Shown here in pieces: positions 9,277-42,874 of a DNA stretch of 64,000 nt. Under the pieces are notes generated by a model. The model searched no databases and had not been told where the DNA came from. It worked only from the letters and a program-made list of their open reading frames with translations. How positions within the stretch are numbered: position 1 is the first letter of the stretch; every line of letters begins with the position of its first letter. This DNA is from Krasilnikovia cinnamomea. Lineage in GTDB: Bacteria > Actinomycetota > Actinomycetes > Mycobacteriales > Micromonosporaceae. The DNA lies in contig NZ_SHKY01000001.1 in assembly GCF_004217545.1 (NCBI RefSeq), forward strand, positions 1,240,001-1,304,000. The letters are read 5' to 3'. The position numbers were made by a program, and so were the translations under genes.

Positions 9277-10155
9277 ATGGCGCTAATCGAGCTGAGGCAG
9301 AGCGGTGGGTGCGGGTGCTGCGGTCCCGCCGATAGATCAACTGGTGCAGCGAGCGGGGCCGGCGCCGACGAGGACGGCTCCACGACGCGGATCCGGTTCG
9401 TCGCGGGGGCCGAGCAGCTCGGCATTGCCGGCGACGACCTCGCCGCCCTGGTGACGCTGTTCCATCGTGGGGACTGCGCGGCGGTGCGGCGGCACATGGC
9501 GCAACTGGTGCAGGCGAGGCTGGCCGCCGCCGAGCTGCGGGTGGTGGAGCAGATCGAGCAGGCCGCCCGCGTTCAGGCCGGGGCGGGCGGGCTCGGTCCT
9601 GGATCGGGTCCGGCGGATGCGGGGTTGCCGGGTGCGGTGACCGAGCTGACCGCGCTGGTGGCGCGGCTGCAGGGCGCCGCGCATCGGTTGGCGCAGCCCA
9701 CCGGCAGTGGGGCGTGCGACGCGGACTGCCCGTGCGTGACCGCCGCATCGGCAGTATCGAGTCCACGGATCCCCGCGAGCCGCGCCGCCCTGTCCGGCAG
9801 CGAGCTGAACGGTCCGGACCTGGTGTGCACGATCGAGGGCGGGATCGACGCGATGCGGGCCAGGATCACCGAGTGGCAGGCCGTCCTGGGCCGGGCGACC
9901 GGGCGCGAGCCCGCCGACGGTGGAGTGGTCCTGAGCTTCAGCCACGACCCGGCGGTGACTGTCGAGCTGGCCCGGCTGGCCGCCGCCGAGTACGCCTGCT
10001 GCTCGTTCTTCACCTTCACCCTGATCGTGGGCCCGGACGGGGTGCGGTTCACGGTGACCGCCCCGCCCGACGCGCAGGATGTGGTGACCGCCTTGTTCGG
10101 CGGCCGGGCCGAGGCCGGGCTGCCCTTGGGTACGCGCGGGAAGGCGGCTGCCTGA
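9277..10155 (+). CDS. Metal-responsive protein: MerR-type sensor half without DNA-binding domain, plus extra C-terminal domain
   Basis: This 292-residue protein begins with a Cys-rich tip (GGCGCCG). Residues about 45-95 and 118-150 then form helices resembling the dimerisation helix and metal-binding tail of mercury-type MerR proteins, ending in CDADCPC. No helix-turn-helix precedes them. The C-terminal part (about 205-285) carries EYACCSFFTFTL, a double-Cys motif seen in actinobacterial proteins near mercury genes. It could bind Hg(II) or a similar soft metal as a buffer, delivery protein or modulator of the neighbouring MerR. It is first in a tightly packed operon: its TGA overlaps the ATG of the MerR gene by one base. 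The transcript appears leaderless, which fixes the start. Confidence 0.6.
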   Translation: MALIELRQSGGCGCCGPADRSTGAASGAGADEDGSTTRIRFVAGAEQLGIAGDDLAALVTLFHRGDCAAVRRHMAQLVQARLAAAELRVVEQIEQAARVQAGAGGLGPGSGPADAGLPGAVTELTALVARLQGAAHRLAQPTGSGACDADCPCVTAASAVSSPRIPASRAALSGSELNGPDLVCTIEGGIDAMRARITEWQAVLGRATGREPADGGVVLSFSHDPAVTVELARLAAAEYACCSFFTFTLIVGPDGVRFTVTAPPDAQDVVTALFGGRAEAGLPLGTRGKAAA

Positions 10156-28543: not shown

Positions 28544-31500
28544 TTACCGGACGGTCGTGGTGACCGCCCGGGCCCGGCCCGTACCGGCCGCGTTGACGGC
28601 CTGCACGGTGCAGCGGTAGCGGGTGCCCGCCCGGACACCGGTGACCGTGAACGACAGGGCGCGGCGGCTACCCGACACCACGGTCACCACCGGGGCGCCG
28701 TACGGGCGGCCCTTGGCGTCCAGCCGCTGCCGGGTGATCCGGTACGCGGTGACCGGCGCGCCGCCGGTCGACGTGGGGGCCGTCCACCGCAGGGTGGCGG
28801 TGAGCTTGCCACCCTGCGGGCCCCGGGTGCCGGTGAGGCGCCCCGGTGCGCTGGGCGCGGTCCGCGGGGTCACCGCGGCCGAGCCGGCCGAGAAGGCGCC
28901 GGTACCGACCGAGTTCACGGCGCGGACCCGGAACCGGTAGGCCACTCCGTTGGACAGACCCGTCACCGTCAGGACGGAGGCCGCGGCCGACGTGGTGCGC
29001 AGCGCGCCGACCTGGCTGCCCTTCGCGTTGAGGACCTGCACCTCGAAGCGGGTGATCGGCGCGCCGCCGTCCTGCGCCGGGGCGGTCCACCGGACCGTGC
29101 CGACCCCGTTGCCCGCCGACGCCTGGCGGATCGTCGGCTGGCCCGGCGCGGTGCGGGTGACCGGCGGCACCGGGTCGGCCGGGTCGGTCGGGGTGCCGGG
29201 GTCCACCGGGGTGCCCGGGTCCGTCGGGGTGCCCGGGTCCGTCGGGGTGCCCGGGTCACCGGCGCCGATCGTGACGGCGTTGGAGGTCGCCGAGAAGTCG
29301 CTGGCCCCGGCGGCGTTGACCGCGCGGACCCAGAAGACGTACGACCCGCCCGGCACCAGGCTGCTGAAGGTGAGTTCGGTGGCGTCCGGCCCGGCGACGT
29401 CCACGTCGAGCACGATGCCGGACTCGGCGTCGAGCGCCTGCACCTCGTACCCGTAGATGTCGCTGCCGCCGTTGCGGGCGGGCGCGGTCCACCGGACCAC
29501 CGCGGTGCCGTTGCCGGTCGTGGCCGTGCCGATGGTGGGCGCGTCCGGGGCCACCGGGGTCACCGGCGAGTCGGGCGCGGCCACGGGGGTGACCGGCGCC
29601 GACGGCGCGCTGAACTCGCCCGGACCGGCGGGAGTGACGGGACGGACCCGGAAGGTCACCGGTACGCCGTTGGTGAGGCCGGTGACGACCATGCTGGTCG
29701 CCGTGGCGGGCGCCTCGACCAGCCGGGTCGTGGTGCCGTCGTTGACCTCGATCTCGTAGCCGGTGACGGTCGCCCCGCTGGCGTCCACGGGCACGGTCCA
29801 CAGGACGGTCGCCTCGGCGTCGCCCGCGAAGGCGGTGACGGCCGTGGCCGCGGTCGCCGCGGTGACCTCGACGGTCTGGTCGGCGAAGGCCAGCTTCTCG
29901 ACGTTGCGGATCGTGTCGGTGCCGTCCGGGCCGGAGACGATCAGGGCGTCGCCGACCGGGGTGACCGCGTACTGGTCGCGGTCGCCCGAGAAGACGGCGG
30001 TGTCCTCGCCACCGGTGCCGGTGCGGATCTCCCGTACGGTGACGATGTCCTTGGGGTTGATCTTGCCGGCGAAGACGTCGGCCTGCAGTTCGGCCATGCT
30101 GTTCGCGGTGCGGATCTCCTTGCCGTCGGCGTCGCGGACGCTGAGCCGGACGGTCAGGTAGCGGTCGCCGTCGATGATGTCGTCGCCGCCGCGACCCTCG
30201 ATGGTGTCGCTGCCGGGCCCGCCGAGCAGGATGTTGCCCTCACCCCACACGTTGCCGTGCAGGTCGCAGGGGCGCCCGGTCTGGTTGCCCACCGCGGAGG
30301 CCGCGATGGGCAGGCTGGTGACGACCTGGTCCAGGCCCTTGATCCGGGCGATGCCGTCGGCGTCGAGGGCGTCGCAGCCGAGGAAGCCGCCGCCGCCCCG
30401 GGTGGACGGGGTCACGTCGTCGCCGCGCAGGGTGTCGTCGTGCACGCCGCCGGAGAGCGCCTCGAGCTCGTTGTACCGGTCGCGGACCCCGACGGCGAGG
30501 ATGCTCAGGGGCAGCAGCGGGAGGTCCAGGTCGGCGTCCATCGGCTGGTCGTCGCCGCCCTGCTCGGGGCGCGCCGCGATGGACCAGTCGTAGCCGGAGC
30601 CGCCCGCGTTCTTCTCGATGCCGGGGCCCTGGACCCCGATGTCGTCGCCGCCCTCCATGTCGTAGTCGTCGTCGCCGCCCTGGCCGATCAGCACGTCGTG
30701 GCCGGGCTTGTTGGAGTCGTCCAGGAAGAACAGGTTGCCGCTGTCACCCTGCAGCAGGTCGGGCGAGTTGCCGCCCTCCTGCCAGTCGTCGCCGGCGTCG
30801 CCGAAGACGGCGTCCTCGCCGTCGCCGGCGTTGATGATGTCGTCGCCCTCGCCGCCGAACGTCTCGTTGGTGTTGGCGCCGCCGTTGGTGAAGTCGTTGC
30901 CGTCGCCGCCGAGCACGATGTCGAGGCCGGGGCCGCCGTCGATGGCGTCGTTGCCGGGGCCGCCCTTGCTGATGTCGTCGCCGCCGAGGTCGGTGAGGAC
31001 GTCGTCGCCCTCCCCGCCGAGCGCGATGTCGTTGCCCGCGCCGCCCTCGATGACGTCGTCGCCCTCGCCACCCCAGGCGGTGTCGTTGTCGTTGCCCGCG
31101 CTGACCCGGTCCCGCTCGTCGGTGCCGGAGAAGGTCGACTGGGCGTTGATGCCGGGCTTGTCGACGGTGTTGCGCGAGCGGTACTTGATGGTGCCGTCCG
31201 GCATGCGGATCAGCAGCGCCTTCTCGTCGCAGGCGGTGGCGGGGTCGTCGGCGACCAGGTTGCCGAACTGCTCGTACCCGGCCGGGGTGCCGGCGAGCTG
31301 GGACAGCTCGAAGGTGCAGTCGGCGGTCGCGAACGAGTCGGCCCGCAGGCTGTGCGCGGTGGTGGTGCGGCCGATCAGCTCGGCGAACGAGTTGCCCTCG
31401 AGCTGGGCGCGCAGGTTCATGCCGGGCGTACGGGCCAGGTAGTACAGCCGGTCGCCGTTCTGCAGGCGGGTGAGCTGCTCCTCGAACACGTAGTTGAAAG

Positions 31501-33907
31501 TGCTGCCGAGCAGGCCGCCGAACGGGTTGGTGACCTCGGCGAGACCGCCGATCCACAGGTCGACGTCGTCGAGTCCGGAGGTGGCCGGGGTCCAGGTGCC
31601 GGTGGCGTTCATGAACGCGGCGGCGTCGGCCGGCGGCGTGTCACCGGTCTGCGGGTCCACGATGGCGCGGGCCGCGGCCCGCTTCGCGGCGGCCGTGGTG
31701 GCCGCGACGATGCTCGGGTGCTTTCCGTACGCGGCGACGAAGTTCACCAGCGACTCGGGGTGCTTGAGGTGCTCACCGAGGTCGACCCAGCTGGTGTACG
31801 GGGCGAGCTGGCCGTCGTTGGTCTTCTCGTGCAGCTCGCGGCGGAAGTTGTTCAGCGACGGCACACCCTCGGAGCGGCCCCGGGCGATGTTGATCGCGGC
31901 GAGGTCCATCGGGAGGCCGAGCAGGTTGCTGCGCAGCGTGTCGGTCATGAACTCGTCGAGCTCGTTGCCGACCTGGCCGGACATGCCCATGACGATCTGG
32001 CCGGCGGCCTGCTCGGGGCTCAGCGTCCCGTTGTCGGTGTACGCCATCGGGTTGAGGAACCCGTCGAGCAGCGACAACGAGGCGTCGGAGCCGTCCTCGC
32101 GGATCCGCGAGATGCGCTCGGTGAGCATGGAGTGGCCGAAGCGGTAGACGGCGTGCGCGAACTCGGCGTACACGGCCGGGTTGAGCTCGGTCTGGGTGAA
32201 CGCGAACGGCTGGAACGGGTTGATCCCCGGCTGGATCTTGCGAGCGAACTCCTCGAAGACCAGGTGCTGGTACTCCATCTCGTTGACGAACCGGGCGGCC
32301 TGGAAGATCCGCTCGCCGTTCCAGGCGTCGCCGATCTGCCACTCGGACAGGGCGGTGCCGTCCTCGGTCAGGACCCGCTCGATGTCGCCGACGAGCCGGT
32401 TGTGCTCGGCGTGCCAGATCTCGTGCACGGCGGTGAGGCCGATGTTCTCGTTGGCCCGGCCGTCACCGGCGATGTAGTGGGCGTCGAGCATCTCGTCGTC
32501 GTACGTGCCGGCCGGCTGCCTGGCGAAGTCGGCGCTGGCGGTGTCGTCGTCGTCCTTGCGGGGCGCGACCGGCGCGGTGGCCGGGTTGTGGTCGGTGTCG
32601 ACCGGGCTCGGGTCGGCGTGGTGCGCGATGTCGGTCAGGAACGGCGTGTTGAAGTGCAGCGCGTCGGCGGGCACCCGGACCGGGTTCGCGGTGTCGCCCT
32701 CGACCAGGCCGGATCCGGTGACGTACTGCGGCAGGCCGCGCTCCGGGCCCGGGACGAACCTGCCGTAGGGATCGGCGAGGATCATCGGCACGTTGGTGAC
32801 GTCGGCGTCGGTGAGTTCGAGGCCGAGCAGTTCACGGGCCTGGCGCTTGGTGTCCTCCCAGGTGGGCATGCCGCCGAGCGGGCCGGAGAGCAGGTTGCCG
32901 GTGGTCACCGGGCGGCCCTGCGGGTCGTTGGCGTACTCGCGCAGGAAGACCTGGTGCGCGGCGTGCGAGGTGTACGCCTGGGAGAGGTCGACGAACGGGG
33001 TGTCGGTGTTGACCGCGTCCTGCACGTCGTCGGCGGTGCCGAGCTTGCCGTCGGGACCGGGCTGGTTGGCGGCCCGGGTGAGCACCATGAACCGCATCGC
33101 CGGGGGCACGTACCTGGCGTCGCCGGGCTTGGGGTCGTCGGCGGTGCCGGGGGTGGTGTCCGGCCCGGCGATCAGCGGGTCGTCGGCCTTGAGCGGCACG
33201 ATGACCGTCCCGCCGCCCTTGACGGTCTGGTCGATGCCGTGGTCGAAGAACTGCCCGAACAGCGTGAACCACGAGTTGTAAGGGGCGGACAGGCCGACGT
33301 CGGTGGTGACGTTGGGGATGAACAGCGTCTGGCCCTCGGTCGTCGGGGGCTTCGCGCCGCTCTGCGACCGGACCGGGTTGCCCGCGGCCGCGACGGCGGC
33401 CGGGTTGTTCGCGGTCTGGTCGGCGATCAGGTTGCTGATCAGCCGGGGCTGCGAGTCGACGACGGTGTTGTTCCTGGTCTTGTCCGCGTAGGTGGTGGAC
33501 ATCGCCGGGCTGCCCGGACCGAACATGTTCGCCGGGGCGGTCTCCGCGGCCTTGAAGGTCTTGCTGGCGAGCCGGGGGAACTTCTGGTCGGCGGCGCCGA
33601 ACATCTCCTGTCCGGCGGTGAGGTTGTTGCAGCTGCCATCGACCGTGCGCAGACCCTGCGAGAGCAGGGGGCTGGGCAGTTGGTCCGGCCCGTCGCCGAG
33701 CAGGGCGCCGCAGGGGCCGGTCGCGCTGGTGGTGTTCGCGACGTGCGCCTCAGCGATCTTGATCTGCTTGAGGATGTACGCCAGGTCGGCGGGGGTGACG
33801 GTGAAGCCCTGGCCGATCGGCGCGGCGGCGGCGGGGGTGGCGACGGCCGCACCGGCGACCAGGGTGGTGACCAGGGCACCGATGGCGGTGCGGAGGGGGA
33901 GCCTCAT
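28544..33907 (-). CDS. Secreted animal-type haem peroxidase with RTX calcium-binding repeats and four fibronectin III domains
   Basis: This 1787-residue exported protein starts with a signal peptide (cleavage near residue 29, AAAAP). Residues about 190-880 form a haem peroxidase of the animal (peroxidase-cyclooxygenase) superfamily: FGQFFDHGID with distal His223 and RFGHSMLTERI with proximal His592. Residues about 925-1240 contain RTX nonapeptides (GGEGDD, GGAGND and similar) that bind calcium and aid folding outside the cell. Four FN3 domains fill about 1350-1786, split by a (PTDPGT)n linker. Animal-type peroxidases with RTX repeats include the Mn(II)-oxidising MopA-type enzymes, but also others. 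RTX proteins are usually exported by type I systems, whereas this one has a Sec signal. It is likely co-regulated with the multicopper oxidase nearby. Confidence 0.9.
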   Translation of the reverse strand: MRLPLRTAIGALVTTLVAGAAVATPAAAAPIGQGFTVTPADLAYILKQIKIAEAHVANTTSATGPCGALLGDGPDQLPSPLLSQGLRTVDGSCNNLTAGQEMFGAADQKFPRLASKTFKAAETAPANMFGPGSPAMSTTYADKTRNNTVVDSQPRLISNLIADQTANNPAAVAAAGNPVRSQSGAKPPTTEGQTLFIPNVTTDVGLSAPYNSWFTLFGQFFDHGIDQTVKGGGTVIVPLKADDPLIAGPDTTPGTADDPKPGDARYVPPAMRFMVLTRAANQPGPDGKLGTADDVQDAVNTDTPFVDLSQAYTSHAAHQVFLREYANDPQGRPVTTGNLLSGPLGGMPTWEDTKRQARELLGLELTDADVTNVPMILADPYGRFVPGPERGLPQYVTGSGLVEGDTANPVRVPADALHFNTPFLTDIAHHADPSPVDTDHNPATAPVAPRKDDDDTASADFARQPAGTYDDEMLDAHYIAGDGRANENIGLTAVHEIWHAEHNRLVGDIERVLTEDGTALSEWQIGDAWNGERIFQAARFVNEMEYQHLVFEEFARKIQPGINPFQPFAFTQTELNPAVYAEFAHAVYRFGHSMLTERISRIREDGSDASLSLLDGFLNPMAYTDNGTLSPEQAAGQIVMGMSGQVGNELDEFMTDTLRSNLLGLPMDLAAINIARGRSEGVPSLNNFRRELHEKTNDGQLAPYTSWVDLGEHLKHPESLVNFVAAYGKHPSIVAATTAAAKRAAARAIVDPQTGDTPPADAAAFMNATGTWTPATSGLDDVDLWIGGLAEVTNPFGGLLGSTFNYVFEEQLTRLQNGDRLYYLARTPGMNLRAQLEGNSFAELIGRTTTAHSLRADSFATADCTFELSQLAGTPAGYEQFGNLVADDPATACDEKALLIRMPDGTIKYRSRNTVDKPGINAQSTFSGTDERDRVSAGNDNDTAWGGEGDDVIEGGAGNDIALGGEGDDVLTDLGGDDISKGGPGNDAIDGGPGLDIVLGGDGNDFTNGGANTNETFGGEGDDIINAGDGEDAVFGDAGDDWQEGGNSPDLLQGDSGNLFFLDDSNKPGHDVLIGQGGDDDYDMEGGDDIGVQGPGIEKNAGGSGYDWSIAARPEQGGDDQPMDADLDLPLLPLSILAVGVRDRYNELEALSGGVHDDTLRGDDVTPSTRGGGGFLGCDALDADGIARIKGLDQVVTSLPIAASAVGNQTGRPCDLHGNVWGEGNILLGGPGSDTIEGRGGDDIIDGDRYLTVRLSVRDADGKEIRTANSMAELQADVFAGKINPKDIVTVREIRTGTGGEDTAVFSGDRDQYAVTPVGDALIVSGPDGTDTIRNVEKLAFADQTVEVTAATAATAVTAFAGDAEATVLWTVPVDASGATVTGYEIEVNDGTTTRLVEAPATATSMVVTGLTNGVPVTFRVRPVTPAGPGEFSAPSAPVTPVAAPDSPVTPVAPDAPTIGTATTGNGTAVVRWTAPARNGGSDIYGYEVQALDAESGIVLDVDVAGPDATELTFSSLVPGGSYVFWVRAVNAAGASDFSATSNAVTIGAGDPGTPTDPGTPTDPGTPVDPGTPTDPADPVPPVTRTAPGQPTIRQASAGNGVGTVRWTAPAQDGGAPITRFEVQVLNAKGSQVGALRTTSAAASVLTVTGLSNGVAYRFRVRAVNSVGTGAFSAGSAAVTPRTAPSAPGRLTGTRGPQGGKLTATLRWTAPTSTGGAPVTAYRITRQRLDAKGRPYGAPVVTVVSGSRRALSFTVTGVRAGTRYRCTVQAVNAAGTGRARAVTTTVR
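29181..29252 (-). repeat. Four 18-bp tandem repeats encoding the Pro-Thr-Asp-Pro-Gly-Thr linker
   Basis: Units of 18 bases start at 29181, 29199, 29217 and 29235; the last two are identical. They encode a flexible six-residue repeat between FN3 domains 2 and 3 of the peroxidase. The number of units could vary by replication slippage without changing frame. Confidence 0.85.
30640..31130 (-). repeat. RTX nonapeptide-coding region
   Basis: Within the peroxidase gene this stretch encodes about a dozen GGxGxD-type nonapeptides, seen in DNA as repeated gtcgtcgcc and gccgcc blocks. Each loop would bind Ca2+ in a parallel beta-roll. A shorter group lies at about 30170-30240. Confidence 0.8.
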
Positions 33908-34011
33908 TGACGCATCTCCGTGGGAGTCGGGGAAAAGCGCTGAATTCGCACATCTTGGGCAGCGCCGGTGTGGTCCGGCTGCCGTCCCGCTCCCGTCCGG
34001 CTGAGGACACG

Positions 34012-34049
34012 CTGAAGGGCCGTCCCCGACTCCGGGAACGGCCCTTCAG
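34012..34049 (-). terminator. Terminator of the multicopper oxidase operon
   Basis: CTGAAGGGCCGT pairs perfectly with ACGGCCCTTCAG; after one mismatch, three further pairs close a small loop. It begins 14 bases after the stop codon at 34064. It lies within the upstream region of the peroxidase gene. Confidence 0.75.
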
Positions 34050-34063
34050 GCTGTGCTATTCGA

Positions 34064-34837
34064 TCAGTGGTGCCCGCCGCCGTGCTTGGTCAGGTCGGGC
34101 ATGCCGTGGGCCAGGTCCACGCCCGGACCGGGCTCGCTGGCCGCGACGGCCACCCGCTCGGCCGGCACCCGCGCGGCCCGGCCCATCGCCTGCCGTACGG
34201 CCTCGATCTGGCCGTCGGAAAGGACCGCGCCGAAGTACCGCACGGTCAGCCCGGCGGGCTGCACCGTGGTGACGTAGCTGTTCAGCGAGTCGGACAGCAC
34301 GCCCTCGGCGTCCTCGGCCGCCTGCGCCTGGGCCGGGGTGACCCCGGCAGCCGGGACGACCGCGAACGTCAGGTGGTGCACCAGCACCGGCCGCGCCGTG
34401 TAGAACCCGACGGTGGCGGGCTGGTGGTCGCGCATGAACCGGTCCGCGTCGCCCGCCGAGGCGCCCTCGGGCAGTACCAGCGTCAACTCCGGCACCACCG
34501 TCTCCAGCAGCCCCTTGTCGAACACCGCGAACGTCGCGTCGGTCAGCTCGCCGTACCCGTCCCGCTTCGCCGCGGCGCGCAGGTCGCGGGCGATCTGGCG
34601 CCGGTCGGCGCCCTTGACCGGGTGGATACCGATGGCCGCCCGCAGGCGCAGCATCGGGCCGTCATAACTCGTCGTGGCGAGCTCGTCACCGGCGTCGTCG
34701 TTGACCGGCCCGGCCGCCACGGCGGGGGCCGGCGTGGCGCTCCAGCCACCCCAGCCGCCCAGCGCGGCCGCACCGCACAGGATCAGCGCGACGGCCAGGC
34801 ACCAGCGCAGGCCGGTGTCCCGCTTCCGGCGGTCCAT
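34064..34837 (-). CDS. Membrane-anchored exported protein with His-rich tail, coupled to the multicopper oxidase
   Basis: The 257-residue protein has one N-terminal hydrophobic helix (WCLAVALILCGAAALGGWGGW) that serves as anchor or signal. The rest is exported and shows two similar stretches (ADRRQIARDLRAAAKRDGYGE and DGQIEAVRQAMGRAARVPAERV) and ends in HGMPDLTKHGGGHH, a probable metal-binding tail. No family was recognised. Its ATG shares one base with the oxidase stop (TGATG), so both are made together. It could deliver copper to the oxidase, act as electron-transfer partner, or tether it. The His tail supports metal handling, but the specific role is inferred. Confidence 0.65.
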   Translation of the reverse strand: MDRRKRDTGLRWCLAVALILCGAAALGGWGGWSATPAPAVAAGPVNDDAGDELATTSYDGPMLRLRAAIGIHPVKGADRRQIARDLRAAAKRDGYGELTDATFAVFDKGLLETVVPELTLVLPEGASAGDADRFMRDHQPATVGFYTARPVLVHHLTFAVVPAAGVTPAQAQAAEDAEGVLSDSLNSYVTTVQPAGLTVRYFGAVLSDGQIEAVRQAMGRAARVPAERVAVAASEPGPGVDLAHGMPDLTKHGGGHH

Positions 34838-36513
34838 CAGGTGCCCAGCGGGTAGCTGGGGGCGTACGTCGCGGGCCACGTCGCATCCGCGTCGTACTTC
34901 GGGGCGTCCATCTTGATCGGGTCGTTTGCGTTGATGTCGCCCACCGCAAACTGGATCATCATGTCGTCGTCCTCGTGGATGAGGTTGTGACAGTGCATCA
35001 TGTACCGGCCACCGGCGTTGCCGGGACCCGTGGTGAACTGCATGAGCACGCTGACCGTCTCGTTCTCGCCGAGGTAGAAGACGTCCTTGCCGCCGCCCTC
35101 CCAGGCGTGTGCCTGGCGGTTGGCGGTGGTGTTCCGGGCGATGATCTTGGCGTCGATCAGGTGGATGTGCAGCGGGTGGAACCAGCCGCCCGACTCGTTG
35201 ACCAGGTCCCAGATCTCGACGTCGTACGGCTTCGGGTTGGCGAAGACCCGCTGGAAGTTGGTCTTCTCGATGTCGTCCCAGGTCTCGCCGTTGATGGTCC
35301 AGACGCCGTGCTTGCGCTCCAGGCGCATGGAGCGGCGCGCCTTGGCCATGGCGGGGGTCAGCTTGTTGACGTCGATCGCGCCGAGGTTCGCGTACGGCTG
35401 CGGGCCGAGGTCCAGCACCGTGGGGATCTTGTACGTGTCCGCCGGGCCGGAGTCCGCGACGACCTCGAACTGCATGACCTTGCCGGTGTTGGCGAAGTCG
35501 ACGTTGTTCTTGTTGCTGAGGTTCCGCAGCTCGATCTTCTGGCCGGGCTTGTACTTCCGGAAGTCGATCAGCACCTCGTAGCGCTCGGCGGCGCCGTGCC
35601 GCCACGACGTCACGGCGTTGACCTTCGGGGTCATGCCGGCGTCGGTCCCGACGACATGGAACGCGTCACCGGTGCTCAGCGCGAACCGGAACGACCGGGA
35701 GATGCTGGCCACCAGCACCCGGAAGCGGTAGACGCGCGGCTTGACCTTCATCTTGGGCCACGGAACCCCGTTCACCAGGATCACGTCGCCCATGAAACCG
35801 GCGTTGTCCTCGCCGTCGAAGGCCACCGAGCCGTCGGCCTTGAACGCCATGTCGCTGACGATCAGCGGCACGTCGAACTCGCCCTGCGGCAACTGCGCCT
35901 GCTCGTACTTGTCGTGCAGGTGGTACATCGCCGCCAGGCCGGCGAACACGTTCTGGGCGGTGGTGCGGTGGTTGTGGTCGTGGTACCAGAGCGTGCGCGC
36001 CTGCTGCCAGTTCGGGTACTGGTAGACCTTGCAGTGGCCCGGGCGGGTCTGGTCGTTGGCGTAGCCGTCGTACTGCGGCAGCGACGCGGAGCCGTGCAGG
36101 TGGGTGACGGTGCTGAACTCGCGGCCGTGCAGCGGGTTCACGGTCAGCTTGTTCGCGATCCGCACCTCGGTACGGGTGCCCTGCTGCACCTTCAGGGTGG
36201 GGCCGGGGAAGATCCCGTTGTACCCGGCGATCTTCGTGGTCAGGCCGGGGACGATGCTGGCCGTGCCGACCTTCTGGGTGAGCGCGTACCGGGCGAACGG
36301 GCCCTTGGCGTCGACACCCTGCGCGTAGGGCAGGAGCACCGGCGGACGCCGGAACATGTTCGTGTACGGCGTGGGCCTGTTCTTCGCCGCGAGCGCGCTG
36401 GAGGCGGCGACAACCTCACCGCCGGAGGCCGCCACGATCAGACCGCCACCGCCGATGGCGAGTGCGCCCTTGAGCAGACCGCGGCGGGTCAGCTTTGAGT
36501 CAGTCATCCGCAT
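34837..36513 (-). CDS. Tat-exported multicopper oxidase
   Basis: The 558-residue protein carries a twin-arginine signal (TRRGLLKGALAIGGGG), so it is exported folded, with copper loaded in the cytosol. All four copper motifs are present: HLHG (138-141), WYHDHNH (176-182), HPLHIH (446-451) and HCHNLIHEDDDMM (507-519). It couples one-electron oxidation of a substrate to reduction of O2 to water. The architecture is that of three-domain CueO/CotA/bilirubin-oxidase-like enzymes; phenols, Cu(I), Mn(II) or bilirubin are possible substrates. M3 (36507) is an alternative start. Its stop overlaps the next gene by one base. It is divergent from a SARP regulator gene across 223 bases holding TGAGGT-type motifs. 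Confidence 0.9.
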   Translation of the reverse strand: MRMTDSKLTRRGLLKGALAIGGGGLIVAASGGEVVAASSALAAKNRPTPYTNMFRRPPVLLPYAQGVDAKGPFARYALTQKVGTASIVPGLTTKIAGYNGIFPGPTLKVQQGTRTEVRIANKLTVNPLHGREFSTVTHLHGSASLPQYDGYANDQTRPGHCKVYQYPNWQQARTLWYHDHNHRTTAQNVFAGLAAMYHLHDKYEQAQLPQGEFDVPLIVSDMAFKADGSVAFDGEDNAGFMGDVILVNGVPWPKMKVKPRVYRFRVLVASISRSFRFALSTGDAFHVVGTDAGMTPKVNAVTSWRHGAAERYEVLIDFRKYKPGQKIELRNLSNKNNVDFANTGKVMQFEVVADSGPADTYKIPTVLDLGPQPYANLGAIDVNKLTPAMAKARRSMRLERKHGVWTINGETWDDIEKTNFQRVFANPKPYDVEIWDLVNESGGWFHPLHIHLIDAKIIARNTTANRQAHAWEGGGKDVFYLGENETVSVLMQFTTGPGNAGGRYMMHCHNLIHEDDDMMIQFAVGDINANDPIKMDAPKYDADATWPATYAPSYPLGT

Positions 36514-36559
36514 TCTCCGCCTTCCACGTACCAGGTGGGCGAGAAGCTAGCGGCGGGCG

Positions 36560-36566
36560 CTGAGGT
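36560..36566 (-). promoter_or_regulatory. Single SARP-type heptamer facing the multicopper oxidase
   Basis: CTGAGGT on the plus strand reads ACCTCAG toward the oxidase gene, 47 bases before its start. It matches the repeat unit at 40730-40769. No good second copy at 11 or 22 bases was found, so it is tentative. Confidence 0.35.
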
Positions 36567-36623
36567 GTCCCGGTGGAAATCCTGTCGCCGGCACCGGGAG
36601 TGGCCGAAAGGACACACAGCAGA

Positions 36624-36652
36624 ACCTCAGCCGCGGCTGGATAAGACCTCAG
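36624..36652 (+). promoter_or_regulatory. Two SARP-type heptamers upstream of the SARP gene
   Basis: ACCTCAG occurs at 36624-36630 and 36646-36652, exactly 22 bases (two 11-base turns) apart, in the same orientation relative to the SARP gene as the four-copy array has relative to the PKD-type gene. A third related element (CTCAGGATCC, repeated at 36679) lies off phase. The pair may serve autoregulation. Confidence 0.5.
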
Positions 36653-36736
36653 GATCCGGCCGGGACGGGAGCGAAAGGCTCAGGATCCCCGGGGACTCAC
36701 CGATCGATGCATCCTGCAGAGGAGGTCATTCAGGCG

Positions 36737-38503
36737 ATGCGGGTCACGGTGCTGGGACCACTGACGGTCGCCGACGGCGACGGCGTCGTGCTGCCCGCCG
36801 GTGAGCTGCCCCGCCGCGCCCGTCAGGTGCTGGCGGTGCTGTCCGCCCGGCACGACCGCATCCAGTCGAAGGACGCCCTGGCCGACGCGGTGTGGGGCAA
36901 CGACCTGCCCGGCAACCACGTCGCCACGCTGGAACACTACGTGTCGATGATCCGGCGGCGGCTGCAGCCCGGGAGCAATGCGGCGTCGTGGTTCATCGTG
37001 ACCCGGGGCAGCGGCTACCTGTTCGACACCGGCCGCGCCGAACTCGACCTCGCCGAGCTGCGTACCCGGATCCGCGGCCTCGACGACCTCCCGCCGGAGG
37101 GCTCCGAGCGGCTGGCCGCGCACGGCCAGATCCTCGCCCTGGCCCGCCAGCTGCCGTTCCCGGAGGACCCGTACGCCGACTGGGCCGAGCCGGCCCGCAC
37201 CGAGGTCCAGTTCGCGGCGGTGAACGCGCTGCTGGCACTCGCCGCGGCCGCGCTGCCCGACGACCCCGCGCGCTCCCTGCGCCTGGCCCAGGAGGCGGTC
37301 GGGCTCAGCCCGTTCCTGGAATCGGGCTACCAGGCCGCCATGTCCGCGGCCGTGGCCATGGACCGGCCCGACGAGGCCCTGCGGATCTTCGACCGGTGCC
37401 GCCGGGTCCTCAACGAGGAGCTGGGGGTGCCGCCATCGGCCGAACTGGTCCGGCTGCAGGCCGCCGCCCTGGCGCACCGCCTCCCCCGCCCCGCCGAGGC
37501 CCAGCCCGCACCGACGCCACCCCCGACCGAGCCGGCCGTTTCCGCGCGGCCGGCCACCCCCCAGACCTCCGAGCTGGACCGGGCCGCCGTCGCACTGGGC
37601 GGCTTCGTGGGCCGCCAGCCGCTGCTGGACGTGCTGTTCGAACCGGCGGCCCCGCTGATGATGCACGTCGTCGGGCCGGTCGGCGCGGGCAAGTCGGCCT
37701 TCCTTACCGAGCTGGCCCGGCGCGCCCCCGGACGGGTCGGCATCGGGCACGCGGGATCGCTGGCCGGGGTGTTCCGGCTGGCGTGGCTGCGCGCCGCCCT
37801 GATCGACCTCGGCGCCGGCCCCGACGTCCTTGCGGCCGTCGACGGCGCCCGGCCGGACCGGGCGCTCGGCCCGGAGGACCTGGAGCTGATCGGTACGGTG
37901 TTCGACCGTCCCGAGCGGGTGTTCCTGGCCGTGGACGACGCGGCGGACCTGGACGCCGCGGGCGTCGCCGAACTCGCCTGGCTCAGCCGGCACTGCCCGC
38001 AGCTGCGCGTGGTGCTGACGTACCGCTACCCGTCGCAGGTCGTCGACCGGCCGCTGGCGGCCCTCGACACGGCGGTGGTGCTGCGGCTCGGCCCGCTCAC
38101 CCACGCCGAACTCGCGCCCCTGGGCGACGAGCGGGTGGCCGAACGCAGCGGCGGGATCCCCGCTCTCGTGCCGGTCGCGACCCGGCCGCCGGAGATCGCC
38201 TGCGCGGTCGCGATGCAGATCGCCCGGCAGCGCACCCGGTGGATGCGCGAGCCCGCCTGGGACGTGCTGCGCCTGTGCGCCGTGCTCGGCCCGCTCAGCG
38301 CCGCCGACCTGGCCCCGCTGACCGGCCGGCCCGTGCCGGAGGTGCTGACCGCCATCGACGACCTGGTGCACGCGCACCTGCTCAGCGACGGCCCCGGCGG
38401 CACGGTGCAGCACCGCAGCTCGCTGGTCCGCGACGCCATCCGGGAACAGGTGTCGCAGGCCTCCAGCGCGCACCTGCGGGAAAAGCTGGCGGCGGCCTCC
38501 TGA
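36737..38503 (+). CDS. SARP-family regulator with BTAD and P-loop ATPase domain
   Basis: This 588-residue regulator has an OmpR-type winged helix (1-95; LEHYVSMIRRRLQPG), a BTAD helical domain (about 100-245; EALRIFDRCRRVLNEELGVPPSAEL), a Pro-rich linker, and a P-loop domain with GPVGAGKS at about 313-320 and a Walker B-like VFLAVDDAADLD. It is shorter than AfsR and lacks TPRs. SARPs bind heptameric direct repeats at 11-base spacing and recruit RNA polymerase. GAGGAGG precedes ATG 36737. It lies among the peroxidase, oxidase and PKD-type genes, and ACCTCAG repeats occur in front of it and in front of the PKD-type gene, so it is the likely activator of this block. Confidence 0.85.
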   Translation: MRVTVLGPLTVADGDGVVLPAGELPRRARQVLAVLSARHDRIQSKDALADAVWGNDLPGNHVATLEHYVSMIRRRLQPGSNAASWFIVTRGSGYLFDTGRAELDLAELRTRIRGLDDLPPEGSERLAAHGQILALARQLPFPEDPYADWAEPARTEVQFAAVNALLALAAAALPDDPARSLRLAQEAVGLSPFLESGYQAAMSAAVAMDRPDEALRIFDRCRRVLNEELGVPPSAELVRLQAAALAHRLPRPAEAQPAPTPPPTEPAVSARPATPQTSELDRAAVALGGFVGRQPLLDVLFEPAAPLMMHVVGPVGAGKSAFLTELARRAPGRVGIGHAGSLAGVFRLAWLRAALIDLGAGPDVLAAVDGARPDRALGPEDLELIGTVFDRPERVFLAVDDAADLDAAGVAELAWLSRHCPQLRVVLTYRYPSQVVDRPLAALDTAVVLRLGPLTHAELAPLGDERVAERSGGIPALVPVATRPPEIACAVAMQIARQRTRWMREPAWDVLRLCAVLGPLSAADLAPLTGRPVPEVLTAIDDLVHAHLLSDGPGGTVQHRSSLVRDAIREQVSQASSAHLREKLAAAS

Positions 38504-38546: not shown

Positions 38547-40661
38547 TCAGTTGGTCACGCTGACCGCGAAGCCGAGCTGGCGGCCGCCGGTCGTCGAGAC
38601 GAAGCTGACCGTACGCACCGTGCCCGGGTTCGGGCCGGTCACCCGCAGGCTGAACGCCCCGGTCGCGTCCACGTTCGCCGTGCCGATGACCCGGCCGGTG
38701 AGCGTGCTGCCCAGCACCACGGAGACCCGCTGGCCCGCGAGGATGCTGCTGCTGCCCGAGATCCGCCACTCGTTGTTGCCGGTGCGGTAGCGCACCGCCA
38801 GCCCCGAGAACGTCTCCGGCTGCGGCGTGACCACGACCCGGTCGGTGCTCACCCCGGCCGCGTTGCGGACCGTCAGCTCCAGCACCACGGGGGCGTTGTT
38901 GTAGACGTACGTCGCGTTCGGGCCCGGAGCCGCGGGCAGCGCCTGCACCGGGTAGGTGAACGACGGCTTCGCGGACGTCGCGCCGGCCAGCGTCACCGCC
39001 GGGCCGGACACCTGGGTCCACGAGTAGGTCTCGGCCGCGGTCGACTTCGAGCCGTCGAGGGTGACCGCGCGGCCCCGCAGGATGCTCTGGTCGACACCGG
39101 CGTCGGCCTTCGGCGCGACCACATCGGTCACGTCGACCGATGTGGTCGCCTGGCCGGTACCGCCCGGCCCCTCGACGACGACCTTGAACTCGTACCGGCC
39201 CGGTGCCGTCGGCGCGAACGTCGCGAGCGAGGTCGCCGCATTCGTCAGCGTGACGGCCGTACCGGCGGTCTGCGTCCAGGTGTACTTGGTGATCTCACCG
39301 GCCGAGCCGGTGGCGTCCAGGCGCACGGTCTGGTTGACCAGAGCCGGGGTGTCGGCGGTCGCCGCGGCCACCGGGGCGGTCGGCAGGAACTCCCCACCGG
39401 TGCTGACCAGCGGAACGGTGGTGGAACCACCCGCGGCGGAGGTGACCGTGATCGCGGCCGGCGGGGCCGCGACGTTGCTGAACGGCGTCGCGGTGACCGG
39501 ACCGAACCCGGCGACCGACAGGGCCGGGTTGGCCTGCTTGTCGCTGGAGCTGGCCACCACCGTGAGCTGCTGCGTGTCCGCGTCGTACGCGGCCGTGGCC
39601 GTCACGACGTCGACCAGGGCCCGCGTCTTGTGCGTCGTCGGACGGTCGCTGACGTTGACCACCTCGACCTTCGGGTCCGCCGGCAGCGTCCCGGTGAGCG
39701 GGAACCGGCCGTAGTAGCGGCCGTTGTCGCCCCGCAGCTTGGTGTTGTGGAAGCCCAGCGCCGGGTCGGCCTGGATCTCGATGACCTGGCCCGGCTCGCT
39801 GCTGGCGAACACCTCTACCGTGCCGGTGCCGTTCGCGGCCCGGGTGTAGGTGGCCTGGTCGATGTCGACGCCCGCGTTGGTCGCGTAGCGGCCCTGGACA
39901 CTGAACAGGTCCGAGAAGCCGACCTGACCGAGCACCGCACCCGTGCTGGGGTCCAGCTGCTCGATGCGCACGAAGTTGGTGTTGTACGGGCTACCGACGA
40001 CCTTGTGGTCGACGCCCGGGTCGCCGGTGTACCCGGCGGGCGCGGCGGGGGCCACGGCCGGGTCCCACTTCAGGAACGGACCGATCCGGCTGTTGAAGGC
40101 CGAACCGAACGCGAGCGGGGCGGCACCGATGTCCTCGGTCATGTTCACCCCGCGGTCGTCGGCGACGATGTCGTCGATCCCGTACGGGTGGGTGATGCGG
40201 AAGCGCTGGCCCGCGGTGGCGTCGAAGCGGATCCGGACCCGGCCGAAGACCATCTGGTCACCGTCGATCGGCTCCTCGCGGGCGAACGCGGCTTCGAGGT
40301 TCATGCCGATGACCGCGCGCACGCCGTTGGTCAGAGTGACCTCGGAGCCGGCGAGCTGGTAGAAGGACTCACCGGGGAAGTTGTCCGGGAAGGACACCGG
40401 TGCGTCCGGGTCCGGCATCTCGTCGGCCGGGCCCGGGCAGAGCAGGTCGGCCGGGTCGGTGCACAGCTCCAGCCGGACGTTGTTGCTGTCGCGGTACCAG
40501 GCCGGGAAGCCGTGGTCGGCGATCGGGCCGACCTGCGTGAGCTTGCCGGACCGGGGGGCGCTCGGGGTGACGACCACCGCGGCCGCGGTACCGGCCAGCG
40601 GCGCCAACACCGCCGCGATCACGCCCAGCGTGACCGGCAGGCGGGCCAATGTCTTCTTCAT
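38547..40661 (-). CDS. Secreted protein with PKD-like domains
   Basis: The 704-residue exported protein has a clear signal peptide (KKTLARLPVTLGVIAAVLAPLAGTAAA). The first 360 residues form a domain I cannot name, with two Cys (LCTDPADLLCPG) and repeated mentions of fixed loops such as FGRVRIRFDATAG. Then come two PKD-like Ig domains (about 435-520 with ATGSAGEITKYTWTQTAGT, and 525-620 with DGSKSTAAETYSWTQVSG), and a final beta domain that resembles the end of secreted hydrolases. The four-copy SARP-type repeat lies 69 bases upstream of its start, making it the best candidate target of the regulator at 36737. It could be a substrate-binding or surface protein working with the oxidases. Confidence 0.75.
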   Translation of the reverse strand: MKKTLARLPVTLGVIAAVLAPLAGTAAAVVVTPSAPRSGKLTQVGPIADHGFPAWYRDSNNVRLELCTDPADLLCPGPADEMPDPDAPVSFPDNFPGESFYQLAGSEVTLTNGVRAVIGMNLEAAFAREEPIDGDQMVFGRVRIRFDATAGQRFRITHPYGIDDIVADDRGVNMTEDIGAAPLAFGSAFNSRIGPFLKWDPAVAPAAPAGYTGDPGVDHKVVGSPYNTNFVRIEQLDPSTGAVLGQVGFSDLFSVQGRYATNAGVDIDQATYTRAANGTGTVEVFASSEPGQVIEIQADPALGFHNTKLRGDNGRYYGRFPLTGTLPADPKVEVVNVSDRPTTHKTRALVDVVTATAAYDADTQQLTVVASSSDKQANPALSVAGFGPVTATPFSNVAAPPAAITVTSAAGGSTTVPLVSTGGEFLPTAPVAAATADTPALVNQTVRLDATGSAGEITKYTWTQTAGTAVTLTNAATSLATFAPTAPGRYEFKVVVEGPGGTGQATTSVDVTDVVAPKADAGVDQSILRGRAVTLDGSKSTAAETYSWTQVSGPAVTLAGATSAKPSFTYPVQALPAAPGPNATYVYNNAPVVLELTVRNAAGVSTDRVVVTPQPETFSGLAVRYRTGNNEWRISGSSSILAGQRVSVVLGSTLTGRVIGTANVDATGAFSLRVTGPNPGTVRTVSFVSTTGGRQLGFAVSVTN

Positions 40662-40729
40662 GGAACTCCTCAGCAGTTTCCGGGTCCGCCGACGATGGCC
40701 GAACGGCCCGTGGCAGCGGTCTCGTCCGG

Positions 40730-40769
40730 CTGAGGTTCGGTTGAGGTTGCGCTGAGGTCCGGCTGAGGT
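40730..40769 (-). promoter_or_regulatory. Four-copy SARP-type direct repeat (11-bp period)
   Basis: CTGAGGT, TTGAGGT, CTGAGGT and CTGAGGT start at 40730, 40741, 40752 and 40763, each exactly 11 bases apart. SARPs are known to bind heptamer direct repeats at this spacing. The array lies 69-108 bases before the start of the PKD-type gene. The remaining part of 40662-40984 contains the promoter side of the histidine kinase gene and no further gene; CCACC-TAG-GGTGG at 40920-40932 is a minor dyad. Confidence 0.75.

Positions 40770-40984: not shown

Positions 40985-42874
<1,890 letters not shown>

What the first reader, a model, noticed from the sequence alone, without database searches (positions are those of the whole stretch)
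40730..40769. Four CTGAGGT-type heptamers at exact 11-base spacing
Seen: CTGAGGT, TTGAGGT, CTGAGGT, CTGAGGT start at 40730, 40741, 40752 and 40763. Known: SARP regulators bind heptameric direct repeats separated by 4 bases. Inference: this is a binding site of the SARP encoded at 36737, in front of a secreted PKD-type gene. Four near-identical copies in perfect phase are unlikely by chance.
Basis: partly seen in the sequence, partly recalled or inferred. Interest (0 to 1): 0.8.

Follow-up and report, generated by a model that had tools for sequence, protein, structure and literature searches.

The report
SARP operator switching on secreted oxidases
In a bacterium close to Actinoplanes, four near-identical 7-base words, each 11 bases (about one DNA turn) after the last, are the likely binding site of a neighbouring antibiotic-type regulator (a SARP), which would switch on a predicted secreted-protein gene together with a peroxidase and a copper oxidase instead of an antibiotic pathway.

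Summary
The array is real and is best read as a SARP operator. On the working (minus) strand it is ACCTCAG x3 plus ACCTCAA at 11-bp steps, continued by two degenerate units to a -10-like CATCGT, upstream of the PKD-protein gene. The exact pair pattern occurs nowhere else in the 7.6-Mb genome. A motif learned only from PKD promoters of 14 other genomes put its five best 11-bp hits in this 64-kb window at upstream regions of one cluster: PKD protein, RTX haem peroxidase and the multicopper-oxidase (MCO)/SARP divergent region. In 33 of 36 promoters the repeats keep helical phase with an NANNNT -10, as reported for AfsR. PKD genes beside the SARP carry the array in 22 of 23 loci (21 under leave-one-out), those without it in 0 of 11, including two 67%-identical orthologues in genomes with no SARP match. 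Binding, activation and the inducing signal are untested, and the MCO operator here is weak. The peroxidase has MopA-like architecture and the MCO resembles bilirubin oxidase and CotA, so Mn(II) oxidation is a possible, unproven output.

The parts
40726..40769 (-). Four near-perfect 11-bp operator units ACCTCAGCCGG ACCTCAGCGCA ACCTCAACCGA ACCTCAGCCGG (the reported array)
40704..40725 (-). Two degenerate in-phase units (ACGAGACCGCT, GCCACGGGCCG) linking the array to the -10
   Evidence: similar degenerate units are visible in orthologous promoters
40692..40697 (-). Predicted -10 element CATCGT, 10 bp after the last in-phase heptamer
38547..40661 (-). Predicted secreted protein with PKD domains (704 aa); modelled as a chain of beta-sandwich (Ig-like) domains
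36737..38503 (+). SARP: OmpR-type DNA-binding domain + BTAD + AAA-like region (ORF can be extended to 36707)
36556..36588 (-). Weak MCO operator: in-phase GCGACAGGATT TCCACCGGGAC ACCTCAGCGCC; only the last unit is a good heptamer (8.9 bits as a 22-bp pair)
36544..36549 (-). Predicted -10 element TAGCTT of the MCO promoter, 10 bp after ACCTCAG
36613..36653 (+). SARP-side repeats CACACAG-N4-ACCTCAG-N15-ACCTCAG (11- and 22-bp register); possible autoregulation, no in-phase -10 seen by eye
34837..36513 (-). Multicopper oxidase with a Tat-like N-terminus (read by eye), closest solved relative bilirubin oxidase
33964..34018 (-). Peroxidase operator: CCTTCAGCGTG TCCTCAGCCGG ACGGGAGCGGG ACGGCAGCCGG ACCACACCGGC
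33952..33957 (-). Predicted -10 element CAAGAT of the peroxidase promoter, 10 bp after the last in-phase heptamer
28544..33907 (-). Predicted secreted animal-type haem peroxidase with RTX repeats and fibronectin III domains (1787 aa)

Best explanation
The four heptamers are the likely operator of the SARP encoded next door at 36737-38503, which would bind them side by side on one face of the DNA and recruit RNA polymerase to the promoter of the predicted secreted PKD-protein gene. Shown here: the repeats, their 11-bp phase, their phase to a -10-like hexamer, matching operators at the peroxidase promoter and in the MCO/SARP region, conservation of this in SARP-carrying relatives, and absence of the array where no SARP lies next to the PKD gene. 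Inferred: that this SARP is the protein that binds, that it activates as AfsR does (one protomer per 11-bp unit, sigma region 4 docking on the SARP), and that the AAA-like C-terminus gates it. The regulon would be a set of secreted oxidoreductases (RTX haem peroxidase, multicopper oxidase) plus an Ig/PKD-type protein, not a biosynthetic cluster.
For: (1) Uniqueness: the exact pair pattern occurs only here in 7.6 Mb. ACCTCAG-N15-ACCTCAG occurs exactly twice, here and in the SARP/MCO intergenic region (reversed control 0). CYTCAGS pairs at 11 bp: 4 genome hits, two of them the PKD and peroxidase promoters (control 1). At 22 bp: 2 hits, both in the cluster (the reversed control also gives 2, so place counts here, not number). 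(2) Out-of-sample motif: a matrix from 14 other genomes' PKD promoters puts the five best 11-bp hits of this window in the cluster (14.5-20.8 bits, next 9.0). (3) Leave-one-out scans: 49 hits above 14 bits in 15 SARP loci (about 306 kb; about 3.7 expected at the chance rate). 48 lie upstream of PKD, MCO/SARP or peroxidase genes, and one before a CopC-like gene preceding PKD. Eight PKD loci without a neighbouring SARP (160 kb) gave 0. (4) Co-occurrence: 22 of 23 PKD loci with the SARP score above 14 bits, 0 of 11 without. In genomes held out of training it is 8 of 9 versus 0 of 11. L100 and L101 have 67%-identical PKD genes, no SARP match at E<=1e-60 and no array. (5) Geometry: NANNNT starts 17 bp (modulo 11) from a heptamer start in 33 of 36 promoters, and all 10 TANNNT found are in that phase; AfsR sites are described the same way. 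(6) The SARP aligns with AfsR over DNA-binding domain and BTAD.
Against: No binding or expression data exist. AfsR's base-contacting T88 and R92 align with His and Met here, and its phosphate-contacting R87 with Glu, so specificity cannot be transferred. A SARP paralogue with a nearly identical recognition helix (L034/L122) has no hit above 14 bits within 16.6 kb. The own MCO-side site scores only 8.9 bits. In 5 of 23 SARP-MCO loci (L061, L064, L112-L114) the intergenic region scores only 5.5-7.5 bits, and in the own locus and L060 the best hit there faces the SARP, not the MCO. In G006 the PKD gene lacks the array, which sits before the preceding CopC-like gene. Under leave-one-out the PKD promoter of L080 falls below 14 bits, which makes 21 of 23. 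Stray strong hits exist: 51602 in this window (15.6 bits, inside a peptidase gene) and 1430 bases upstream of PKD in L102 (19.0 bits). With 2 mismatches allowed, ACCTCAGN4ACCTCAG gives 28 genome hits against 19 for the reversed control. The genomes are related, so counts are not independent. I had seen the -10 spacing by eye before counting it. In 3 of 36 promoters the phase slips by one base.
Confidence: 0.85

Rival explanations
1. The arrays are bound by another OmpR-fold regulator, such as a PhoP-like response regulator or a global AfsR-type SARP encoded elsewhere, and the cluster SARP is a bystander.
For: OmpR-fold proteins commonly use direct repeats of about 11 bp (recalled). The review states that AfsR and PhoP share the afsS site. 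The own genome has 59 loose first-look candidates for SARP-like proteins.
Against: Arrays follow this particular SARP: present in 22 of 23 linked loci, absent in 11 of 11 unlinked, although genomes without it such as G604 and G597 still give 113 and 119 loose first-look candidates. Of 20 window proteins scanned (of 46 predicted) only the SARP has a Trans_reg_C domain. In G030, where SARP and PKD are on different contigs, the array sits at the SARP's divergent promoter and not at PKD.
Confidence: 0.1
2. The array is a neutral short tandem duplication (11- or 22-bp minisatellite) without regulatory function.
For: Tandem Repeats Finder reports it as a 22-bp x 2 repeat with 90% matches.
Against: Related species keep YTCAG cores and the 11-bp phase while aligned PKD-promoter identity has a median of 42%. 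Of all 1024 pentamers, the six with three or more 11/22-bp pairs (TCAGC, CCTCA, ACCTC, TCAGG, CTCAG, CAGGC) all overlap the word ACCTCAG(C/G). The same motif is at other, non-homologous promoters and in phase with the -10.
Confidence: 0.02
3. The SARP binds the array but as a repressor, or mainly to set its own level, so the enzyme genes are not activated by it.
For: The review mentions a medium SARP (Atr32) with a negative effect. The own SARP side also has an 11/22-bp repeat set without an in-phase -10.
Against: The repeats sit upstream of, and in fixed phase with, poor -10 elements, the activator geometry described for AfsR.
Confidence: 0.08

Closest known systems
AfsR and the afs box of the afsS promoter (PMC10936776, passages read)
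   Same: Two 11-bp direct repeats in the -10/-35 spacer and a poor NANNNT -10 (CACTGT). From the reported box (-40 to -19) I compute 17 bp from repeat start to -10, as here, assuming the -10 spans -12 to -7 (recalled convention). The reported -35 TTCAGC resembles the (C/T)TCAGC core.
   Different: AfsR is 993 aa in a PDB entry, with NOD and TPR domains and a target (afsS) of secondary metabolism. Here the protein is 588-598 aa, both base-contacting residues differ, arrays have up to six units, and the targets are predicted secreted enzymes.
PimR operator (SARP-LAL; PMC5930380, passages read)
   Same: Heptameric direct repeats with 4-bp spacers, three in the main operator, cooperative monomer binding.
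   Different: Heptamer CGGCAAG; PimR's site does not overlap the -35; the target is an antibiotic-pathway regulator gene.
Medium SARPs (CdaR, CpkO, FdmR1; PMC10972967, passages read)
   Same: About 600 residues; that medium SARPs carry DNA-binding domain + BTAD + an NTPase-type domain is from the passages.
   Different: The described ones belong to biosynthetic gene clusters; here the cluster holds a haem peroxidase, a multicopper oxidase and a PKD protein.
EmbR (PDB 2fez)
   Same: SARP-type DNA-binding + BTAD protein; recalled as controlling cell-wall genes, so non-antibiotic SARP targets are not unheard of.
   Different: Matches only residues 13-266 here, at 31 bits.
MopA-type Mn(II)-oxidising haem peroxidases (PMC6247904, passages read) and Mn-linked multicopper oxidases
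   Same: Animal-type peroxidase domain followed by RTX calcium-binding repeats; multicopper oxidase as a possible partner activity.
   Different: Mn(II) oxidation by these proteins is untested; here both genes lie beside a SARP with shared operator motifs. P. putida GB-1 mnxG and mcoA promoters are described with predicted sigma-54 and IHF sites (PMC11930936, passages).

Membership tests
SARP operator | Heptameric direct repeats at 11- or 22-bp spacing | tested here: met
SARP operator | Fixed distance of the promoter-proximal repeat to the -10 | tested here: met
   33 of 36 promoters in phase, all 10 TANNNT in phase; the -10s are predicted, not mapped
SARP operator | Cognate SARP gene nearby and co-occurring | tested here: met
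   22 of 23 versus 0 of 11 loci, 21 of 23 under leave-one-out
SARP operator | Direct binding of the SARP (gel shift or footprint) | not testable with these tools
   Bench assay needed
SARP (protein family) | OmpR-type DNA-binding domain plus BTAD | tested here: met
   Trans_reg_C 39.4 bits (cut-off 26.2), BTAD 49.2 bits (cut-off 22.1)
Medium SARP | About 600 aa with an ATPase/NTPase domain | tested here: inconclusive
   598 aa from the longest ORF; AAA_16 29.5 bits, below its cut-off of 32.6
AfsR (equivalog) | About 1000-aa SARP with NOD and TPR domains | tested here: not met
   598 aa; NCBIfam AfsR model 53.3 bits against a cut-off of 1430
PHO-box / OmpR response-regulator site | Response regulator with Trans_reg_C domain in the neighbourhood | tested here: inconclusive
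   None among 20 of 46 window proteins scanned; the hybrid kinase at 40985 has no DNA-binding domain. The other 26 proteins and distant regulators were not scanned
MopA-type long peroxicin | An_peroxidase domain plus RTX calcium-binding repeats in one long protein | tested here: met
   An_peroxidase 207.5 bits, HemolysinCabind 56.1 bits, 1787 aa
MopA-type long peroxicin | Mn(II) oxidation activity | not testable with these tools
   Bench assay needed
MopA-type long peroxicin | PERCAL calcium-binding motifs | not tested
   Motif known only from the passages

The most novel reading that the evidence does not exclude
A SARP, the archetypal antibiotic-pathway switch, has been recruited in the Actinoplanes lineage to run an extracellular metal-oxidation programme: a MopA-like RTX haem peroxidase and a bilirubin-oxidase/CotA-like multicopper oxidase, with a PKD scaffold protein, are switched on together from AfsR-geometry operators to oxidise Mn(II) or phenolics outside the cell.
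Probability: 0.3. Interest if true: 0.75.

Novelty: new variant of a known kind. Interest (0 to 1): 0.6.

Why it matters
SARPs are known mainly as antibiotic switches (recalled; the review passages treat secondary metabolism). Here one regulator, its target promoters and their operators can be followed across more than 20 genomes, with natural absences of the SARP as controls, which gives a testable model for how SARP specificity evolves. If the peroxidase and multicopper oxidase act on Mn(II), this would be a one-regulator switch for two classes of enzyme linked to Mn oxidation. A 2025 paper's abstract calls the regulatory mechanisms of Mn biomineralisation unknown (PMC11930936), although its text cites proposed MnxS1/S2-MnxR regulators in P. 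putida.

Tried and rejected
Considered and rejected: a mechanical tandem repeat; a site for the divergent hybrid kinase gene at 40985, because that gene matched only in the own locus among L026-L035 and L036-L057 (flanks of about 1.5 kb), while the conserved repeats follow PKD; a PHO-box reading (no nearby response regulator with a DNA-binding domain in the 20 of 46 window proteins scanned).

Led nowhere: the fold search of the PKD-protein model (mean pLDDT 89.7) returned, in the 50 rows shown, mostly Ig-like or other multidomain chains with query TM-scores of 0.10-0.22, so the N-terminal region remains without a function. The phylum scan for the SARP found it in 1 of 396 genomes at E<=1e-100, the own one. 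Literature: no listed paper from searches describes this cluster or a SARP controlling a haem peroxidase/multicopper oxidase set, judging by titles, term counts and abstract starts; several lists were capped (one search listed 15 of 7,905, one search listed 10 of 1,019). The BoxA paper (PMC5315471) is not held, so that BoxA is a bilirubin-oxidase-type enzyme is recalled; PMC12896264 (passages) lists BoxA of Arthrobacter sp. QXT-31 and animal haem peroxidases among experimentally characterised Mn-oxidising proteins.

Rows dropped and choices: the -10 phase test listed 38 promoters and tested 36 (MCO of L026 and PKD of L080 skipped, no coding-strand hit above 14 bits then). Its own-MCO row starts at a single heptamer that I picked by eye. 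Not listed there: MCO of L081 and L083 (no hit above 14 bits), peroxidase of L031 (start unresolved) and L033 (gene not found), all of L079. L079 was left out of matrix training. Leave-one-out drops the species itself, not its close relatives (L032 and L033 promoters are 80% identical). Start codons of PKD homologues whose alignment began inside the protein were extrapolated. The Fisher values printed ignore phylogeny and include training promoters, so I do not use them.

Full report
Observation. The exact pair pattern has no other match in the 7.6-Mb genome. In the window, 3 matches with up to two mismatches are found, all exact and all in this array; shuffles give a mean of 0.52 and 2 of 100 reach 3. 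On the strand of the gene behind it, the array reads ACCTCAGCCGG ACCTCAGCGCA ACCTCAACCGA ACCTCAGCCGG, followed in phase by ACGAGACCGCT and GCCACGGGCCG, then CATCGT 10 bp after the last in-phase heptamer.

Neighbourhood. Leftwards lie the PKD-protein gene (38547-40661, minus), the SARP (36737-38503, plus), a multicopper oxidase (34837-36513, minus) and a 1787-aa RTX haem peroxidase (28544-33907, minus). The closest named relatives are Krasilnikovia sp. M28-CT-15 proteins at 85-94% identity. SARP, MCO and PKD genes lie together in 8 of the 10 loci, in Couchioplanes caeruleus and Actinoplanes/Paractinoplanes species (all but L034 and L035); the peroxidase was found in 7 of those 8, not in L033. 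The divergent kinase gene at 40985 is not conserved there.

Sister operators. ACCTCAG-N15-ACCTCAG occurs exactly twice in the genome: in the array and in the SARP/MCO intergenic region. CYTCAGSN4CYTCAGS occurs four times (reversed control 1), two of them at the PKD and peroxidase promoters. The 22-bp version occurs twice, both in the cluster, but its reversed control also gives two. With two mismatches allowed, ACCTCAGN4ACCTCAG gives 28 hits against 19 for the control, so a wider weak regulon can be neither seen nor excluded by these patterns.

Blind motif test. I trained a tied 8-column matrix on PKD promoters of 14 other genomes and scanned this window. At 11-bp spacing the five best hits were PKD (three), peroxidase (34000-34018) and the SARP side (36613-36631), at 14.5-20.8 bits, with 9.0 bits next. 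At 22-bp spacing the two best were PKD and the SARP side (20.8 and 20.1 bits), then 15.6 bits at 51602, inside a peptidase gene. The own MCO-side site reaches only 8.9 bits.

Leave-one-out scans of 15 SARP loci gave 49 hits above 14 bits in about 306 kb. 48 lay upstream of the PKD, MCO/SARP or peroxidase genes (two of these face away from the MCO or peroxidase: L026 9927 and L083 15723), and one, in genome G006 (L079), lay before a CopC-like gene that precedes PKD. Eight PKD loci without a neighbouring SARP gave none. First-order Markov sequence gives about 0.24 hits per 20 kb.

Spacing test. In 16 SARP-linked PKD promoters, 17 YTCAG pairs are 11 or 22 bp apart on the coding strand; shuffles gave a mean of 0.044 and a maximum of 2 in 500. 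The opposite strand had none, and eight promoters of unlinked PKD genes had no YTCAG on the coding strand. Among all 1024 pentamers in 11 divergent representatives, the six with three or more 11/22-bp pairs (TCAGC, CCTCA, ACCTC, TCAGG, CTCAG, CAGGC) all overlap ACCTCAG(C/G).

Co-occurrence. In the genus, 30 of 67 genomes have a PKD homologue, 26 of them a closer orthologue (E<=2e-181), and 23 of 67 have a SARP match at E<=1e-60. Of those 23, 22 also have the PKD orthologue. The 23rd, G616, has SARP, MCO and peroxidase with arrays at the MCO and peroxidase promoters.

Over 34 PKD loci, 22 of 23 with the SARP alongside score above 14 bits upstream of PKD, and 0 of 11 without it do, the best of these being 7.1. 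Of the 11, five are orthologues at 57-67% identity and six are homologues at 39-44%. Fourteen of the 23 were training genomes; with each scored by a matrix that left it out, L080 falls below 14 bits, giving 21 of 23. In genomes never used for training it is 8 of 9 with the SARP, some of them close to training species, and 0 of 11 without. The exception, L049, is G006. One stray 19.0-bit hit lies 1430 bases upstream of PKD in L102.

The sharpest controls are L100 and L101: PKD orthologues with 67% identity, directly followed by an MCO on the same strand, no SARP match in either genome (19 of 113 and 19 of 119 first-look candidates scored), and no hit in 14.0 and 18.3 kb. In G030 the SARP lies on another contig; the array (CGCTCAG, GCTTCAG, GCCTCAG) is at its divergent promoter, ahead of an ORF with an FKBP domain, and not at PKD.

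Not every promoter fits. Of 23 SARP loci with an MCO, 18 score above 14 bits in the 250 bp before the SARP (in the own locus and L060 the best hit faces the SARP), and five (L061, L064, L112-L114) score 5.5-7.5. Of the SARP loci without MCO, G030 scores 19.1, L070 3.5 and the paralogue L122/L034 -0.9.

Geometry. In 36 promoters of PKD, MCO and peroxidase genes, NANNNT hexamers fall mainly in one phase class: 36 in the class 17 bp from heptamer start (modulo 11), against 1-11 in each of the other ten classes. 33 promoters have at least one there, and all 10 TANNNT found, all at MCO promoters, lie in that class. I had noticed this spacing by eye before counting it. The three exceptions (PKD of L028, L081, L083) have a one-base slip between repeat groups; by eye their last group is again 10 bp from NANNNT.

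For AfsR, a 22-bp box at -40 to -19 of two 11-bp repeats with a -10 of CACTGT is reported, and SARP repeats are said to sit 8 bp from the -10 at 11- or 22-bp steps (PMC10936776, passages). Taking the -10 as -12 to -7 (recalled convention), AfsR also has 17 bp from repeat start to -10.

Protein. The SARP aligns with AfsR over DNA-binding domain and BTAD. AfsR's base contacts T88 and R92 correspond to His and to Met/Val/Leu in all 18 SARP sequences compared (paralogue L034 included), while S91 and R94 are kept. The contact scheme is therefore inferred by geometry, not by residue identity.

Mechanism (inferred). One SARP protomer per 11-bp unit, cooperative side-by-side binding, and sigma region 4 docked on the SARP at a weak promoter, as in AfsR. 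The AAA-like C-terminus (below its Pfam cut-off) may gate activity as ATP binding does in AfsR. The input signal is unknown.

Output. The peroxidase has the architecture of MopA-type long peroxicins. The MCO's nearest solved relatives are bilirubin oxidase and CotA, and some database names for relatives read 'spore coat protein A, manganese oxidase'. The PKD protein models as beta-sandwich domains without a telling fold match. Mn(II) or phenol oxidation outside the cell is plausible but unproven.

Novelty. The operator is a standard SARP operator in layout. What appears new is the regulon: none of the listed papers in searches describes it, judged from capped listings. I rate it a new variant of a known kind.

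Noticed in passing
L034:4660-4760 (also L122): A SARP paralogue in Actinoplanes sp. TBRC 11911 with nearly the same recognition helix has three repeats of about 21-22 bp (TTTCYGTTACCGCRGG..) in front of a divergent gene that looks like a short-chain dehydrogenase (by eye), instead of YTCAG arrays.
   Followed up: partly
window 34005-34060: The distal heptamer of the peroxidase operator overlaps the 3' arm of a strong hairpin (-40.4 kcal/mol) that looks like the terminator of an upstream gene; several relatives show a similar CCTTCAG at the end of a GC-rich inverted repeat, by eye.
   Followed up: partly
L079:9458-10066: In genome G006 a small CopC-like gene (23.0 bits, just under the Pfam cut-off of 23.3) precedes PKD and carries the array 66 bp upstream with an in-phase CATCGT.
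   Followed up: yes
own genome position 1015444-1015461 (L094:1501-1518): TCTTCAGCCGG CCTTCAGGGTG in front of a 135-aa ORF with an in-phase TAATTT: a possible distal target of the same SARP. The other extra hit, at 6972979, shows no in-phase -10 by eye.
   Followed up: partly
L125:7387-11319 and L126:5384-9316: In two genomes without a SARP match the PKD and MCO genes sit in tandem on one strand, as if the SARP had been inserted between them elsewhere or lost here.
   Followed up: partly
L075:11077-12614: In G030 the SARP orthologue is on a different contig from PKD and its array faces an ORF with a C-terminal FKBP domain.
   Followed up: partly
L102, 1430 bases upstream of PKD: A 19.0-bit 22-bp-spaced motif hit far from the PKD promoter, unexplained.
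   Followed up: no
window 9277-10155: 292-aa ORF with no Pfam match at E<=0.001.
   Followed up: no
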